Made by a program: the position numbers and the translations under genes. Shown in pieces: positions 12,683-17,631 of a stretch of 64,000 nt of DNA; positions within the stretch are counted from its first letter, which is position 1, and the number at the start of each line of letters is the position of its first letter. The DNA comes from Mesorhizobium sp. CA14 (lineage in GTDB: Bacteria > Pseudomonadota > Alphaproteobacteria > Rhizobiales > Rhizobiaceae), in contig NZ_JAIUHR010000002.1 in NCBI RefSeq assembly GCF_020165195.1, forward strand, positions 186,001 through 250,000, in the 5' to 3' direction. Under the pieces are notes generated by a model. It was not told where the DNA came from. It saw only the letters and a program-made list of their open reading frames with translations, and made no database searches.

Positions 12683-13123
12683 ATGAGAGCACGCGCGGCG
12701 ACGGTCGGAGACCTCGAAGATGTTTTCCGCGGCCTGTCCAAGCGAATATCGGACGAATATGTGGCGGCCGGCAAGGACAGCAAAAGCGCCTATGACAATC
12801 TGATGATGAACCTGAAGGAAGGCCGGGCGCATGCGCTCGCGCAGGACGACAGGACGGTTGCGATCATCGCCTGGCATGAGCACGCGGATGCCGCCGATAC
12901 GCTCTTTGCCGCGCGGGAGGATTTCTTCAACGCTGCGACGGTCCGCTTCTGCAAGCGGCATATCCGCCATGTCCAGGCGCTCGCCGGCAATCTTCCCATC
13001 CATTCGCGCAGCTGGCTGGACAGGCCCGACGTCGCGAAATGGTTCCGCGTGATCGGCTATATCGACCGGGGGCGGGAGAACGGCGCCACCCTGTTCGAGC
13101 TGCCGCCGGCCGCCAACGGCTGA
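12683..13123 (+). CDS. Small GNAT-like protein
   Basis: The 146-residue soluble protein begins with MRARAATVGDLEDVF, typical of strand 1 and helix 1 of GNAT acetyltransferases, and ends with a strand-like ATLFEL. The clear acetyl-CoA loop (Q/RxxGxG/A) is not visible, so catalytic activity is doubtful. The middle segment (RFCKRHIRHVQALAGNL, then WLDRPDVAKWFRVIGYI) resembles the plan of phage-encoded GNAT-like proteins such as T7 gp13. A strong AGGAGG lies 4 bases before the ATG. The gene stands alone and converges on the flavoprotein gene. Function unknown. Confidence 0.5.
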   Translation: MRARAATVGDLEDVFRGLSKRISDEYVAAGKDSKSAYDNLMMNLKEGRAHALAQDDRTVAIIAWHEHADAADTLFAAREDFFNAATVRFCKRHIRHVQALAGNLPIHSRSWLDRPDVAKWFRVIGYIDRGRENGATLFELPPAANG

Positions 13124-13209: not shown

Positions 13210-14352
13210 TCACGAGCCGAACCAGCGCGACCGTCGACTCGAGCCGAACTTTTCCTTGTCGGCACGCAACGCCACCGAAGGCTCGTAGTAGTTGCCTGTC
13301 GGCGCGGGGCCAGAAAAGAAATCGACCTCGACCTTGCCGATGCGGCCGCCACCGAATTCGATGTAACAGGTGCCGAAGCCGTCATAGAGCATGCCGTTTC
13401 CGCTGCCACGCAGCTTGGCGACGAGTGCTGAGGCAACGGCGCGCGCGGCACCTTCGGCGAAGACGCCGGCCTTGGGCGTCCCGGTGTTGGCGCCGTCACC
13501 GACCGCGTAGACATTCCGGTATTTCGTCTCGAGCGTGCGCGGGTTGACCGGGATCCAGCCGTTCTCCGACATCCCGCTTTCGAGCACGACCGGCGGCACC
13601 CGATGCTTGGGCACGCCAAGGAAAAGCTCGAAAGGCATTTCCGAGCCGTCGTCGAGCACCGCCACGTTTCGGCTATTGTCGACCGAGGCGACGCGATGGC
13701 TGGGAATGAACTTGATGCCGCGCTCGGCGAAAGCCGCAAGCAGCGCCTTCGAGGTATCGGGCGACGGCGGCACCGGGCTGCCGAGCGGCAGCACCAGCGA
13801 TATCTCACAGGCCTCCCGCACGCCTTGCCGCACCAGATAGTCATGCAGCATCAACACGCATTCGCTCGGGGCCGGCGGGCATTTGTAGGGCGCGCCGCAG
13901 ACGCCGACCATCGCCCTGCCTCTCTTGAAGCCCGGCAACACGTCGCGCAGCCGCTCCGCGCCGGCAACCGAATAGAACTCGTTGGTGCCCGACAGCCCAG
14001 GCGTAGCGTCGAAATCATATTCAGCGCCAAGCGCGACAATCAGGTAATCGGCATCGTAGACACCGTCGTCGGTGGTGACACGGCGCCTTTCTGGATCGAT
14101 CGCGGTGATGGTGCGCCTCAGCAATTTCACGCCGGGCTTGGCGTAACGGTTGTAGGGCAAGTGGACCGCCTCCGCCGCCTTCAGGCCGAACATCACGTCG
14201 AGTTTCGAAAAGCCGAACACGAAGGCGTCGCTCTTGTCGATGAGCGTGACATCGATGCCGTCGCCCATTGCCTCGGACAGCAGGGTCGTCAGTTCCAGGC
14301 CGCCAAAGCCCGCTCCCACGACGACGATGCGCGGTTTGTTTGCAGTGCTCAT
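13210..14352 (-). CDS. FAD-dependent oxidoreductase of the sulfide:quinone reductase / flavocytochrome c type
   Basis: The 380-residue flavoprotein has the N-terminal FAD-binding loop GAGFGG (13-18), the second dinucleotide-fold segment ALGAEYDF (108-115) and the C-terminal FAD motif VYAVGDGANTGTPKAG. Cysteines at 152, 158 and 165 sit in CGAPYKCPPAPSEC, the area where SQR and FCSD carry redox cysteines. It may oxidise sulfide or another thiol and pass electrons to quinone; an NDH-2-like role is possible. No signal peptide is seen. It lies downstream of the peroxiredoxin gene on the same strand, about 140 bases apart. Confidence 0.75.
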   Translation of the reverse strand: MSTANKPRIVVVGAGFGGLELTTLLSEAMGDGIDVTLIDKSDAFVFGFSKLDVMFGLKAAEAVHLPYNRYAKPGVKLLRRTITAIDPERRRVTTDDGVYDADYLIVALGAEYDFDATPGLSGTNEFYSVAGAERLRDVLPGFKRGRAMVGVCGAPYKCPPAPSECVLMLHDYLVRQGVREACEISLVLPLGSPVPPSPDTSKALLAAFAERGIKFIPSHRVASVDNSRNVAVLDDGSEMPFELFLGVPKHRVPPVVLESGMSENGWIPVNPRTLETKYRNVYAVGDGANTGTPKAGVFAEGAARAVASALVAKLRGSGNGMLYDGFGTCYIEFGGGRIGKVEVDFFSGPAPTGNYYEPSVALRADKEKFGSSRRSRWFGS

Positions 14353-14493
14353 CTCGGTTCCCCACGTCTTGGCGCCATGCAGAAGCGCCGGATTTGAATT
14401 TGCTCACTGTCTTTCGGTTGTGTGGCGGCGGGGATGTGTCTCTCACGTCCTCGCCGCCGATGCCCGGCGCCTCAGACCTCGATGCCTGACCTG

Positions 14494-15159
14494 TCAGGTC
14501 AGCACTGGCTGCGGCACGATGCGGATATAGGGTTTCGGTTCCTTCCAGCCCTGCGGATAGAGCTGCTTTGCTTCATCGTTCGACACCGAACCGGCGATGA
14601 TGACGTCGTCGCCGGGCTTCCAGTTCACCGGAGTCGCCAGGCGATGCTTGGCCGTCAATTGCAGGGAGTCGACGACGCGCAGCACCTCGTCGAAGTTGCG
14701 GCCCGTCGTCATCGGGTAGGATATGACGAGCTTGATCTTCTTGTCGGGGCCGATGACGTAGACATTGCGAACCGTCTGATTGTCGGCGGCGGTGCGGCCG
14801 TCGGCGCTGTTGCCCGCCGACGCCGGAAGCATGTCGTAGAGCTGCGAGACGGCGAGTGTCGGGTCGCCGATCATCGGGAAGTTCGGCGCCATGCCTTGCG
14901 TCTCGGCGATGTCCTTCGCCCAGCCGGCATGCTTCTCGACCGGGTCGACGGACAGGCCGATGACCTTGACGCCGCGCTTGTCAAATTCGGGCTTGAGGCG
15001 CGCCATGTAACCGAGCTCGGTGGTGCAGACCGGCGTGTAGTCCTTGGGATGCGAGAACAGGATGCCCCAGTCCTTGCCCAGCCACTCGTGGAAGGAGATC
15101 GGACCTTGCGTGGTGTCGGCGGTGAAGTCGGGGGCGATGTCTGCGATACGGAGTGACAT
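14494..15159 (-). CDS. 1-Cys peroxiredoxin (Prx6 type)
   Basis: The 221-residue protein carries the peroxidatic motif YTPVCTTELG with Cys45 and supporting Thr42, and is long enough for the Prx6-type C-terminal domain (YPMTTGRNFDEVLRVVDSLQ). I find no other cysteine, so no resolving cysteine is encoded and an external thiol must recycle it. It reduces peroxides in the cytoplasm. An AAGGAA ribosome site precedes the ATG. It is transcribed away from the BTAD regulator, with 133 bases between the starts, and is probably co-transcribed with the flavoprotein. Confidence 0.93.
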   Translation of the reverse strand: MSLRIADIAPDFTADTTQGPISFHEWLGKDWGILFSHPKDYTPVCTTELGYMARLKPEFDKRGVKVIGLSVDPVEKHAGWAKDIAETQGMAPNFPMIGDPTLAVSQLYDMLPASAGNSADGRTAADNQTVRNVYVIGPDKKIKLVISYPMTTGRNFDEVLRVVDSLQLTAKHRLATPVNWKPGDDVIIAGSVSNDEAKQLYPQGWKEPKPYIRIVPQPVLT

Positions 15160-15292
15160 GGTTGTGTTCCTTTCCGGTTGGAATTCGATTGCGGCGCTAA
15201 ATTAGGAAATTTATGTTCCGCCAGCGTTCCCCGACGACGGCCGCCCGGTGACGGCTTCGGCGGCGGTGCCCTTTCTTCCGGACGGTGCATGC

Positions 15293-16996
15293 ATGCGCGT
15301 TTCGATCCACCTCCTCGGCCGGTTCGCCGTCAGCGTCGATGACCGGGTGGTCCCTGCGGCCGAGTGGCGGCGCGACCGCGCCGCGGCTTTGGTCAAGCTG
15401 CTTGCCTTGCGGCCTGGACATCGCGCCCACCGCGAGCAGATCATGGAGACCTTCTGGCCAGACGCGGACCCCGACGCCGCCGGCGCCAGCCTGCGCAAGG
15501 CGGTCCATTTCGCACGCCGCGCGCTGGGCAGCCACGACCTGATCGAGGTGAGCAACGATATCGTGGCGCTCGCCCCGGATGTCGAACTGGCGATCGACAC
15601 CGAGAGCTTCGAGACCGCCACGAAGGCCGCCCTGCGAGGCGGCGACAGCCGGGCCTTCGCACACGCCGCCGACCTCTACGGAGGCATGCTCCTGCCCGAC
15701 GATCTGTTCGTCGAATGGCTGGACACTCCGCGCGCGCAACTGCAGCAGCGCTACAGCGACCTCCTGCGCGCCGGCAATCTCTGGCAGCGACTGATCGCGC
15801 TCGACCCGGCCGACGAGCAGGCGCAATGCGCGCTGATGCAGGCAGCACTCGATTCCGGCAACCGCGTGGAAGCGATCCGCCAATTCAATCAGCTTCGCGA
15901 CAATCTGCATGCCGAGCTCGGCGTCGGGCCGAGCGCCGCCACCATCGCGCTCTACCAGAAGGCCCTGGCTCTGTCCGGCACGGAGATCGTCAGCCCGGTG
16001 GAGCAGATACGCACATCGCTCGCCTGGGGGCTGGTGCATCTGCAAAGCGGCGAATTCGACAAGGCAAGCGAGATCGCGCGGCAGACACGCGATCTGGCGC
16101 TGGGCGCCGATTTGCCGCGCGAGGTCGGCGAGGCGAGCGCGCTGCTGGGCATCGCATCGATGATGCAAGCCCGGTGGCCGCAACTGTTCCGGTCCGAATT
16201 CATCGAATGGGTCCGCGCCAAACCCGCCTTCGTTCAGCATGTCTTCGACGGTCATCTCTGCCTGTCAGAATTCTGCCTGTGCAGCGCGAAAGGCCACGCC
16301 GAGGTCGCGGGACTTGCCCGGGAATTGCTCAGCGTGGCCGAGGAGGCCGGATCGAGCGCGGGCCGCGGTCTCGCTTGCCTGCTGCTTGGAGAGGCCTCGC
16401 TTTTCTCGGGCGATCTCGACAGCGCCGAAGGCTTCCTCACGACGGCGGAACAATTGCTTCAGGAGGCGGATGCGGTGGCGGGCCGCGTGCTTGCAATCGA
16501 GCGACTGGCCGAGATCGCGCTGGAGCGCGGCCAAAGGTGGCGCGCCGGCCGTCTCATCCGCCGCGGCCTGGCGGATGCGGAGCGATCCTGGCTTTCCCCG
16601 CACCTGATCATGCGCATGCAGGCGCTGGCCGTGCGCGCCGCGTCAACACCCAAGATGGTGGCCGAGGAAATCCTCGCCGGCGACCGGCTGTTGACGCCAG
16701 GCGCTTGCCAACCCTGCTCGATGGCGTTGCGCACCGCATCGGCAATAGCGCTTGCCGAAGCCGGCGACCTGGAACAAGTGGACCGCCGCCTGAACGACGC
16801 CGAACGTATCGCCGGCATGTGGCAGGGTGGCCCTTGGGCCGCGGCGCTTTGGGAGGCACGCGGCGTGCAGCGGCGGGCGCAGAACAAGGAAGTGCGCGCG
16901 CTGGCCGCCTTCGAGGAGGCGGCAGGCCGCTACGAGGAGCTCGGGCGGCCACGCGACCAGGCACGCTGCCTCGCACGCATGAGCCCCGGCGGCTGA
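15293..16996 (+). CDS. BTAD-domain (AfsR/SARP-like) transcriptional regulator without ATPase domain
   Basis: The 567-residue protein starts MRVSIHLLGRFAVSVDD, typical of the winged-helix OmpR-like domain of AfsR/DnrI regulators (about 1-90, including WPDADPDAAGASLRKAVHFAR). A bacterial transcriptional activation domain follows (about 100-230, ending QLRDNLHAELGVGPSAATIALY). The remaining 330 residues are alanine/leucine-rich helical hairpins resembling TPRs; no Walker A motif is seen, so the usual NB-ARC domain of large SARPs is absent. A GTG at 15248 could add 15 residues, but family members start at the first strand. It faces the peroxiredoxin gene and may regulate it. Confidence 0.8.
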   Translation: MRVSIHLLGRFAVSVDDRVVPAAEWRRDRAAALVKLLALRPGHRAHREQIMETFWPDADPDAAGASLRKAVHFARRALGSHDLIEVSNDIVALAPDVELAIDTESFETATKAALRGGDSRAFAHAADLYGGMLLPDDLFVEWLDTPRAQLQQRYSDLLRAGNLWQRLIALDPADEQAQCALMQAALDSGNRVEAIRQFNQLRDNLHAELGVGPSAATIALYQKALALSGTEIVSPVEQIRTSLAWGLVHLQSGEFDKASEIARQTRDLALGADLPREVGEASALLGIASMMQARWPQLFRSEFIEWVRAKPAFVQHVFDGHLCLSEFCLCSAKGHAEVAGLARELLSVAEEAGSSAGRGLACLLLGEASLFSGDLDSAEGFLTTAEQLLQEADAVAGRVLAIERLAEIALERGQRWRAGRLIRRGLADAERSWLSPHLIMRMQALAVRAASTPKMVAEEILAGDRLLTPGACQPCSMALRTASAIALAEAGDLEQVDRRLNDAERIAGMWQGGPWAAALWEARGVQRRAQNKEVRALAAFEEAAGRYEELGRPRDQARCLARMSPGG

Positions 16997-17148: not shown

Positions 17149-17631
17149 ATGTTGCGCGTCTGCCTGGCTTTTGTCGCCATCGCTGCCCTGACGAGACCGT
17201 CAGGGGCGGAACCGCGCTCGTCCCATCTTTTCGACCGGTCCGACCTCGCGGCAGCCTATTCGGGCCAATCCGATCTCCTCACCGCATACACGACCGGCAT
17301 GGCGCGCTACCGGCTTCAATATTCGGGCTCCGCGGCCCAGGCCGGTTTGGCCGCGCCGCTCGAGCCTCGCCTGCTGCGGCCTGAATTCCAGCAACGGACA
17401 TGGCGCTCGGCGGACGGCAGCCTGCTGCAGGGCTTTGCCGGCAAAGGCGGCTTCCGGCTGACCACAGGCAACTGCGTGACCCGCATCTGCACGGCCAGCG
17501 AGTGCAGCGAGGCCGGCTGGCCGCTCTATGCCTGCAGCGACGGGCGCAAGCGCAAGATGTCGGTCAACAGCTTCGTGACGGCAACATTCGACGGAGTCAC
17601 CTACCGGCGGCTGAGCGCGCCGCAGGAGTGA
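17149..17631 (+). CDS. Small exported protein of unknown function
   Basis: The 160-residue protein starts with a hydrophobic signal peptide (about 1-20, [20 protein letters not shown]). The mature part has four clustered cysteines ([21 protein letters not shown], about residues 105-125), suggesting disulfide bonds in the periplasm. No known domain is recognised. The ribosome site is weak. It is separated by about 150 bases from the BTAD gene and 73 from the pseudouridine synthase gene. Confidence 0.6.

What the first reader, a model, noticed from the sequence alone, without database searches (positions are those of the whole stretch)
13210..16996. Redox locus (SQR/FCSD-like flavoprotein + 1-Cys peroxiredoxin) opposite a BTAD regulator
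AfsR/SARP-type regulators are best known from antibiotic clusters of actinobacteria. Here a 567-residue version without the NTPase faces a peroxiredoxin-flavoprotein pair across 133 bases. The flavoprotein's three cysteines could handle sulfur or provide electrons to recycle the single-cysteine peroxiredoxin. I infer a regulated peroxide or sulfide defence unit; this combination is not familiar to me as a described system.
Basis: partly seen in the sequence, partly recalled or inferred. Interest (0 to 1): 0.6.

Follow-up and report, generated by a model that had tools for sequence, protein, structure and literature searches.

The report
Sulfur-stress switch with a SARP-type regulator
A soil bacterium carries a small, portable set of genes that probably handles hydrogen sulfide and peroxide, switched by a regulator of a kind best known from antibiotic production; distant relatives of the regulator sit beside other sulfur-handling genes with the same DNA switch.

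Summary
In detail: an SQR-family flavoprotein gene and a Prx6-type peroxiredoxin gene face a 567-aa BTAD regulator across 133 bp. The unit is conserved: in 42 of 42 alphaproteobacterial loci whose contigs reach far enough, the regulator lies beside prx plus this flavoprotein (34) or a persulfide dioxygenase-rhodanese fusion, PRF (8). Relatives at 42-49% identity outside Alphaproteobacteria face rhodanese or TusA/DsrE-type genes in 10 of 12 loci. An 11-bp direct repeat, GTTCC-N6-GTTCC, precedes a -10-like hexamer with the published SARP spacing in 42 of 42 alphaproteobacterial regions and is in 11 of 12 of the others. In a rearranged locus it stands, with one mismatch, before prx and not before the regulator. 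A strict form occurs once, at the locus, in 12 of 15 genomes and not in the other 3. The regulator keeps four cysteines. Best reading: a SARP-TPR activator of a reactive-sulfur module in which Prx6 works with sulfide (as shown for two Prx6 enzymes, PMC12697902). Activation, sensing and enzyme activities are inferred.

The parts
15293..16996 (+). BTAD/SARP-type regulator, 567 aa: OmpR-type DNA-binding + BTAD (about 1-230) then TPR superhelix (about 235-567), no NTPase domain found
   Evidence: Pfam BTAD 43.8 bits, MalT-like TPR below its cut-off; profile hits EmbR 2fez E 6.6e-6 and MalT 1hz4 E 7e-4; model pLDDT 87.8; MalT 1hz4 Z 20.1, rmsd 5.7, 326 aligned; EmbR 2ff4 Z 16.3, rmsd 4.2, 225 aligned
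15215..15230 (.). predicted operator: GTTCC-N6-GTTCC, two 11-bp direct repeats (read toward prx: GGAACGC-TGGC-GGAACAT)
   Evidence: only match in the window, 0.12 expected, 10 of 100 shuffles have one; present in 42 of 42 distinct alphaproteobacterial intergenic regions and in 11 of 12 loci outside Alphaproteobacteria
15199..15204 (-). predicted -10 element TAATTT of the prx promoter, 8 bp beyond the second heptamer
   Evidence: YAnnnT at this exact offset in 42 of 42 regions (TAnnnT in 37); of the other offsets 0-30 one, offset 1, has 30 of 42, three have 1 to 5, the rest 0
14494..15159 (-). Prx6-type 1-Cys peroxiredoxin, 221 aa, C45 and H37
   Evidence: 1-cysPrx_C; human Prx6 1prx E 2.9e-65, match starts at query 3 = chain 5, so H37/C45 = H39/C47; H37 and C45 in 42 of 42 cassette Prx
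13210..14352 (-). SQR/FCSD-family flavoprotein, 380 aa, with the redox-cysteine pair C158 and C329
   Evidence: C158 and C329 align with cysteines of human SQR; fold match SQR 3sxi Z 29.4, rmsd 3.3, 325 aligned, with type II NADH dehydrogenases close behind (5na1 Z 27.6)
16259..16261 (+). codon of C323 of the regulator (HLC motif)
   Evidence: Cys in 54 of 54 regulators
16706..16717 (+). codons of C472-x-x-C475 of the regulator
   Evidence: both Cys in 54 of 54 regulators
16967..16969 (+). codon of C559 of the regulator
   Evidence: Cys in 52 of the 52 rows that have a letter there, of 54
15160..15292 (.). 133-bp divergent promoter region

Best explanation
The three genes are a portable reactive-sulfur module. 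The BTAD protein is a SARP-type activator without an NTPase domain, whose C-terminal TPR superhelix carries four cysteines kept from Alphaproteobacteria to Chloroflexota and Actinomycetota. It binds two 11-bp direct repeats (15215-15230) that end 8 bp before the -10 element of the prx-flavoprotein operon and recruits RNA polymerase there (repeat and geometry shown by comparison; binding, activation and co-transcription inferred). The likely signal is a reactive sulfur species (persulfide, polysulfide or sulfide), read by the CxxC and its partner cysteines (inferred). The enzymes: Prx6 is oxidised by peroxide and reduced by HS-, which makes a protein persulfide and perhaps H2S2 (reported for two other Prx6 enzymes, inferred here); the SQR-like flavoprotein, or in other genomes a persulfide dioxygenase-rhodanese fusion, disposes of the sulfide or sulfane sulfur (inferred from family membership and from the swap of one for the other).
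For: Gene linkage: 42 of 42 testable alphaproteobacterial loci have prx + (flavoprotein or PRF) beside the regulator; PRF recognised by ETHE1 4chl and BpPRF 5ve3. Outside Alphaproteobacteria 10 of 12 loci face rhodanese or TusA/DsrE-type genes. Operator; GTTCC is first among 5-mers repeated at N6 with 20 of 23 upstream regions, other spacings 0 or 1; strict pattern once, at the locus, in 12 of 15 genomes, 0 in 3, reversed control 0 in 15. In L115, where the genes are not divergent, a one-mismatch repeat with TAAGGT behind it lies before prx and none before the regulator. Geometry as published for SARPs (passage of PMC10936776). Cysteines. Prx6 chemistry: abstract and passages of PMC12697902. 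Flavoprotein relatives on two mycobacterial plasmids (48-49% identity) lie beside a metal-sensitive (CsoR-like) regulator gene, and one also near MBL-fold and TauE genes.
Against: No expression, binding or enzyme data. The regulator is rare: 4 of 297 genomes of the order, 4 of 251 of a Chloroflexota-centred sample. L034 keeps C323, C472 and C475 but its ORF ends before C559, it lacks the operator, and beside it is only an AhpC-TSA_2 protein. Relatives with an inserted AAA domain (L122, L123) keep HLC, CxxC and a GTTCC-N6-GTTCC but have other neighbours, and no -10-like hexamer at the usual offset, so the cysteines need not be sulfur-specific. Five of 42 regions have CAnnnT, not TAnnnT, and offset 1 also fits YAnnnT in 30 of 42. 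The flavoprotein is below the cut-off of the nearest NCBIfam model, its last part is modelled poorly, so quinone use is open. In Synechococcus the Prx6-type enzyme did not reduce sulfane sulfur (PMC9426444). Invariant Cys/His could be a metal site.
Confidence: 0.62

Rival explanations
1. Peroxide-stress unit: the regulator responds to H2O2 or organic peroxide through its thiols, Prx6 is the effector and the flavoprotein is its reductase.
For: Prx6 is beside the regulator in 42 of 42 testable alphaproteobacterial loci; cysteines can sense peroxide (general knowledge).
Against: In the 10 rhodanese- or TusA/DsrE-type loci no Prx6 relative was found in the stretch held (nine by tblastn at E 1e-6; L139 by its annotation). 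In 8 loci the flavoprotein is replaced by PRF, whose best solved relatives are persulfide dioxygenases.
Confidence: 0.2
2. The regulator is a repressor, or controls its own gene from the same repeats, rather than an activator of prx.
For: The repeat lies between divergent genes in all loci but L115 where it was found, so position alone does not tell which gene it serves.
Against: Fixed spacing to a -10-like hexamer facing prx in 42 of 42; in L115 the repeat is before prx and not before the regulator; SARPs usually activate (PMC10972967, passages, which also name one negative regulator, Atr32).
Confidence: 0.15
3. The conserved Cys and His residues bind a metal or hold the TPR fold; the signal is something else (peptide, small molecule), as in Rap/AimR-type TPR receptors.
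For: Fold matches include Rap and AimR receptors (TPR folds match widely); H437 is also invariant; the AAA-containing relatives keep HLC and CxxC beside other genes.
Against: Sulfur-type genes recur beside the regulator far outside Alphaproteobacteria; known sulfur sensors use two or three conserved Cys (PMC9774590, passages).
Confidence: 0.25
4. Hitch-hiking: the genes are neighbours by descent only.
For: Most Mesorhizobium loci are close relatives; many share flank genes too.
Against: The unit is kept in loci that lack the four flank genes tested (L006, L007, L014, L026, L027) and on a Pelagibacterium plasmid; the repeat is kept while the spacer around it changed; PRF stands in place of the flavoprotein at two separate places of the tree.
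Confidence: 0.03

Closest known systems
SARP/AfsR-family activators (Streptomyces)
   Same: BTAD and EmbR-like N-terminus; two 11-bp direct repeats, 8 bp from the -10-like element
   Different: No NTPase domain found, four conserved Cys in a TPR tail, sulfur-type genes instead of an antibiotic cluster, one strict operator site in each of 12 of 15 genomes
Reactive-sulfur regulators CstR, SqrR/BigR, FisR
   Same: Conserved thiols, control of sulfide-oxidation or sulfurtransferase genes (PMC9774590, passages)
   Different: CsoR, ArsR and Fis families; the words SARP and BTAD do not occur in that review's main text
Sulfide:quinone oxidoreductase / flavocytochrome c sulfide dehydrogenase
   Same: Fold and redox-cysteine pair
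   Different: 380 aa against 401-437 for the solved relatives; 200.5 against 525 bits in the nearest NCBIfam model; no signal peptide seen by eye (no predictor was run)
Prx6-type 1-Cys peroxiredoxins
   Same: C45, H37, 1-cysPrx_C domain
   Different: Adjacent to a sulfide- or persulfide-type enzyme gene and opposite a dedicated regulator
BpPRF and ETHE1 persulfide dioxygenases
   Same: The gene that replaces the flavoprotein in 8 loci is of this kind
   Different: Not present in the window; its NCBIfam scores are below the curated cut-offs

Membership tests
SARP (AfsR/SARP) regulators | N-terminal DNA-binding domain followed by BTAD | tested here: met
   Pfam BTAD over cut-off, though over residues 162-223 only; EmbR matches the first 229 residues in the fold comparison (2fez, Z 15.8, rmsd 4.3, 223 aligned) and 2-263 in the profile search; the DNA-binding domain itself gave no Pfam hit
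SARP (AfsR/SARP) regulators | Operator of direct repeats at 11 bp, 3' repeat 8 bp from -10 | tested here: met
   42 of 42 alphaproteobacterial regions by sequence, L034 of the outside loci without it; definition from PMC10936776; binding not tested
SARP (AfsR/SARP) regulators | Activates transcription | not testable with these tools
   needs experiment
Large SARPs (AfsR type) | NOD/NB-ARC NTPase domain | tested here: not met
   no such Pfam hit; BTAD runs straight into TPR helices
SQR/FCSD flavoproteins | Pyr_redox_2 fold with the KC(P/A)xAP and the C-terminal redox cysteines | tested here: met
   which cysteines are redox-active in the solved enzymes is recalled
SQR/FCSD flavoproteins | Quinone-binding, membrane-attached C-terminus | tested here: inconclusive
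   residues 326-358 under pLDDT 50
NCBIfam type III SQR, selenoprotein subtype (NF049943) | Score over curated cut-off | tested here: not met
   200.5 of 525 bits
Prx6-type peroxiredoxins | Single peroxidatic Cys, Prx6-specific His, 1-cysPrx_C domain | tested here: met
   role of the His from PMC12697902
Thiol-based reactive-sulfur sensors | Sulfur-dependent disulfide or polysulfide between conserved cysteines | not testable with these tools
   cysteines conserved, chemistry unknown

The most novel reading that the evidence does not exclude
This is the first recognised branch of SARP/BTAD proteins that are thiol-based activators of reactive-sulfur genes, with one operator shared by Alphaproteobacteria, Chloroflexota, Dormibacteraeota and Actinomycetota; and its alphaproteobacterial module is a genetic unit for the newly proposed Prx6-H2S chemistry, in which Prx6 turns peroxide and two sulfides into H2S2 that the neighbouring flavoprotein or persulfide dioxygenase removes.
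Probability: 0.4. Interest if true: 0.78.

Novelty: new variant of a known kind. Interest (0 to 1): 0.66.

Why it matters
The reactive-sulfur regulators named in the passages I read of the review PMC9774590 come mainly from the CsoR, ArsR and Fis families; a SARP-type one would add a regulator family and a ready-made promoter part. A universal physiological reductant of Prx6-type peroxiredoxins has been sought since 1998 (PMC12697902); a gene pair that joins Prx6 with an SQR-like or persulfide-dioxygenase-like enzyme in 42 of 42 testable loci makes the sulfide answer directly testable in a bacterium.

Tried and rejected
A peroxide-only reading was set aside because relatives of the regulator outside Alphaproteobacteria face sulfurtransferase-type genes without Prx6. 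Hitch-hiking was set aside because of the conserved repeat. A wider regulon was looked for: the strict pattern occurs only at the locus in 12 of 15 genomes and nowhere in the other 3; those three (G034 = L011, G1277 = L099, G098 = L115) carry variants that the strict pattern misses. The loose 10-base pattern was not run over whole genomes, as about a dozen chance matches each are expected by my arithmetic. Geometry of the regulator's cysteines: one search listed the box and showed no model file, so distances are not known. Fold lists show TPR folds in general, so the Rap/AimR likeness is no evidence of a peptide ligand. The protein encoded between prx and the flavoprotein in the L026-type loci gave no NCBIfam hit (L104:8896-9339); Pfam was not tried on it. 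The Pfam test of L056:2944-3372 used the strand opposite to the ABM-like gene and says nothing. A flavoprotein copy without regulator or prx nearby exists (G001, L125) and has no repeat.

Literature, open-licence papers only: BTAD + persulfide (2 papers, unrelated by title and abstract start); bacterial transcriptional activator domain + sulfide + rhodanese (0); SARP + sulfane sulfur (4, unrelated by title and abstract start); four of prx, SQR, PDO, regulator, Mesorhizobium (3, none with Mesorhizobium); BTAD + sulfide (1, unrelated); two of BTAD, TusA, DsrE (67, of which 12 listed, none of the 12 with BTAD); sulfur regulators (18, of which 10 listed). No description of such a system was seen; subscription papers and preprints were not searched. 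Papers opened: PMC5930380, PMC10972967, PMC10936776, PMC9774590 and PMC9426444 (passages), PMC12697902 (abstract and passages).

Counts and what was left out. The 42 loci are 29 genomes of the genus (31 with the regulator, minus G1283 and G1271 whose contigs end), L016, L017, L018, L031, L140, and the eight PRF loci. L024 ends inside prx and L124 (G019) ends inside the regulator; both are outside the count. The 42 intergenic regions are another set: one search's 44 minus L117 (taken as the same locus as L021 by position and identical intergenic sequence, though the contig length given differs) and L104 (= L026); it holds L010 and L024 and leaves out L115, L124 and L140, which are told apart. 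The samples were drawn from one and the same group and share genomes. Genomes without a match were not looked at further.
Full report
Observation. The window lies in a 6.07-Mb, 67-contig genome; the closest named regulator relatives are Mesorhizobium and genomes with those contigs are listed as the same genus. The flavoprotein (380 aa), the 221-aa peroxiredoxin with one cysteine and the 567-aa BTAD protein are intact, and the gap between the divergent genes is 133 bp. The flavoprotein has five cysteines, not three.

Conservation of the unit. A pattern scan of the species genomes gave 32 loci with a regulator relative. A profile search found it in 31 of 146 genomes of the genus, 4 of 297 of the order, 3 of 398 of the phylum, two of those being longer relatives, 4 of 251 of a Chloroflexota-centred sample, 3 of 246 of an Actinomycetota-centred sample and 3 of 121 centred on a Dormibacteraeota locus (drawn from the same group, two matches in common); own or centre genome included each time. 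So it is rare and patchy. Of the 31 genomes of the genus, 29 hold prx and the flavoprotein beside the regulator, and the contigs of the other two (G1283, G1271) end before it could be seen. One of the 29, L008 (a MAG), has the flavoprotein in two frames. Devosia (L016, L017, L031), Kaistia hirudinis (L018) and a Pelagibacterium plasmid (L140) hold it too: 34 in all. Eight loci (L020, L021, L022, L023, L032, L035, L115, L116) hold prx and, instead of the flavoprotein, a metallo-beta-lactamase-rhodanese fusion; one such protein was compared with solved structures, and its best relatives include ETHE1 and BpPRF (three have both Pfam domains; its NCBIfam scores are below the cut-offs). L024 ends inside prx. 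On a tree of 54 regulators PRF occurs at two separate places; the flavoprotein label needs three changes, forced by well-supported branches. Five Mesorhizobium loci (L006, L007, L014, L026, L027) lack the four flank genes tested, so the unit seems to move as a cassette.

Outside Alphaproteobacteria twelve loci were read; by record title or by the sample they came from they are Chloroflexota, Dormibacteraeota or Actinomycetota. Six (L028, L030, L036, L118, L119, L120) have a rhodanese gene (mercaptopyruvate-sulfurtransferase-like by NCBIfam, under the cut-off, in L036) divergent from the regulator; five of them also an ABM-like gene and four a molybdenum sulfite-dehydrogenase-like gene (SorA/SoxC models, under the cut-off, in L036). 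In L030 a short SCO4226-like gene, just under Pfam's cut-off, lies in between; L119 is cut by its contig end. Four have the other set: L121 SCO4226-like, SnoaL/TusA (TusA just under cut-off) and DsrE; L029 SnoaL-TusA and DsrE; L033 SCO4226-like, DsrE and a rhodanese (TusA not tested); L139, on a Nocardioides plasmid, DUF4242, TusA family and DsrE family by public annotation. L033 also has an MBL-rhodanese protein downstream and a gene I would call ArsR-like (recalled from its sequence). L056 has only an ABM-like gene before its contig ends and L034 an AhpC-TSA_2 protein. So 10 of 12 face genes of sulfur-transfer families.

Operator. The 133-bp region holds GTTCCGCCAGCGTTCC at 15215-15230, the only GTTCC-N6-GTTCC of the window, with 0.12 expected. 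The pattern is in 44 of 44 alphaproteobacterial intergenic regions, 42 after two duplicates were dropped, and also in L140 and L124. It is in 11 of 12 loci outside Alphaproteobacteria (not L034), once each in the stretch held and beside the regulator's start. In a set of 23 upstream regions, one per clade, GTTCC is first among 5-mers repeated at N6 (20 of 23; next CGTTC, 11, which overlaps it), spacing N10 and N21 have one region each and the others none, and first-order resampled sequences give 0.01 regions on average. The three misses are L034, L115 and L030, where the assumed start codon cuts into the repeat. Read toward prx the site is GGAACGC-TGGC-GGAACAT, then 8 bp, then TAATTT. YAnnnT stands at that exact offset in 42 of 42 regions, TAnnnT in 37; offset 1 also fits YAnnnT in 30 of 42, offsets 19, 24 and 27 in 5, 1 and 2, the remaining offsets up to 30 in none. 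In the ten outside loci printed it stands there or one base further. This is the published SARP promoter: direct repeats 11 or 22 bp apart, the 3' repeat 8 bp from the -10 element (passage of PMC10936776; heptamers with 4-bp spacers in passages of PMC5930380 and PMC10972967). In L115 the genes are not divergent; there the repeat, with one mismatch and TAAGGT behind it, lies before prx, and none lies before the regulator. So it seems to serve the target operon. The strict 18-base pattern was searched in 15 genomes: 12 have one match, at this locus, 3 have none, and the reversed control has none.

The regulator. Its N-terminal part resembles EmbR and its C-terminal part the MalT TPR domain, modelled with pLDDT 87.8. 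Among 54 regulators, down to 42% identity with the window's, C323, C472, C475 and H437 are the same in 54 of 54 and C559 in the 52 rows that reach it. Two longer relatives with extra sequence between the two parts (L122 with an AAA domain by Pfam, L123 by likeness) keep the HLC and CxxC motifs and a GTTCC-N6-GTTCC, but no -10-like hexamer at the usual offset; annotated or recognisable neighbours are a globin (L122, Pfam) and a methyltransferase (L123, recalled). The thiols may thus be older than the link with sulfur.

The enzymes. The flavoprotein matches SQR and FCSD best by sequence and by fold, with type II NADH dehydrogenases close in fold; C158 and C329 align with cysteines of human SQR (that these are its redox pair is recalled). 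Two of its mycobacterial plasmid relatives were read: one lies near a metal-sensitive regulator gene and a second SQR-like flavoprotein, the other beside such a regulator (CsoR-like by weak NCBIfam hits) with MBL and TauE genes. The peroxiredoxin is of the Prx6 type: H37 and C45 in 42 of 42 cassette copies, 40 of them with no other cysteine. HS- was reported to reduce oxidised Prx6 enzymes of Plasmodium and human at more than 10^8 M-1 s-1, depending on that histidine, to a hydropersulfide, with H2S2 as a possible product (abstract and passages of PMC12697902). In Synechococcus all six prx genes were induced by sulfur, but only the Prx5-type enzyme reduced it, not the Prx6-type one (passages of PMC9426444); this speaks against a sulfur-reductase role for Prx6 and leaves the HS- route open.

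Conclusion. Shown by comparison: the unit, its conservation, its exchange of flavoprotein for PRF, the sulfur-type genes beside distant relatives, the repeat and its geometry, the conserved cysteines. Inferred: binding, activation, thiol sensing of reactive sulfur, and the division of labour between Prx6 and its partner enzyme. The regulator is a SARP by domain and operator, but differs from AfsR in lacking the NTPase and from the named sulfur sensors in family. I saw no description of such a system in the searches named under Tried and rejected.

Noticed in passing
L122 and L123: BTAD proteins with extra sequence in the middle (AAA ATPase by Pfam in L122) keep the HLC and CxxC motifs and a GTTCC-N6-GTTCC upstream, beside a truncated globin (L122) or a methyltransferase-like gene (L123); perhaps the older form of this regulator.
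   Followed up: partly
L104:8896-9342: In the L026-type Mesorhizobium clade a 148-aa protein without NCBIfam match is encoded between prx and the flavoprotein.
   Followed up: partly
L141 and L142: Mycobacterial plasmids carry relatives of the flavoprotein (48-49% identity) near metal-sensitive (CsoR-like) regulator genes; L142 also has MBL hydrolase and TauE genes, L141 a second SQR-like flavoprotein.
   Followed up: partly
window 17149-17631 and 12683-13123: Two small genes without Pfam match flank the unit and are found beside it in many Mesorhizobium loci.
   Followed up: no
L125: A flavoprotein copy (79% identity) stands in genome G001 without prx, regulator or operator nearby.
   Followed up: partly
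L008:747-1884: The flavoprotein gene of this MAG is split over two frames.
   Followed up: no
L139: The TusA-DsrE version of the regulator locus lies on a plasmid of Nocardioides sp. JS614 typed as conjugative.
   Followed up: no
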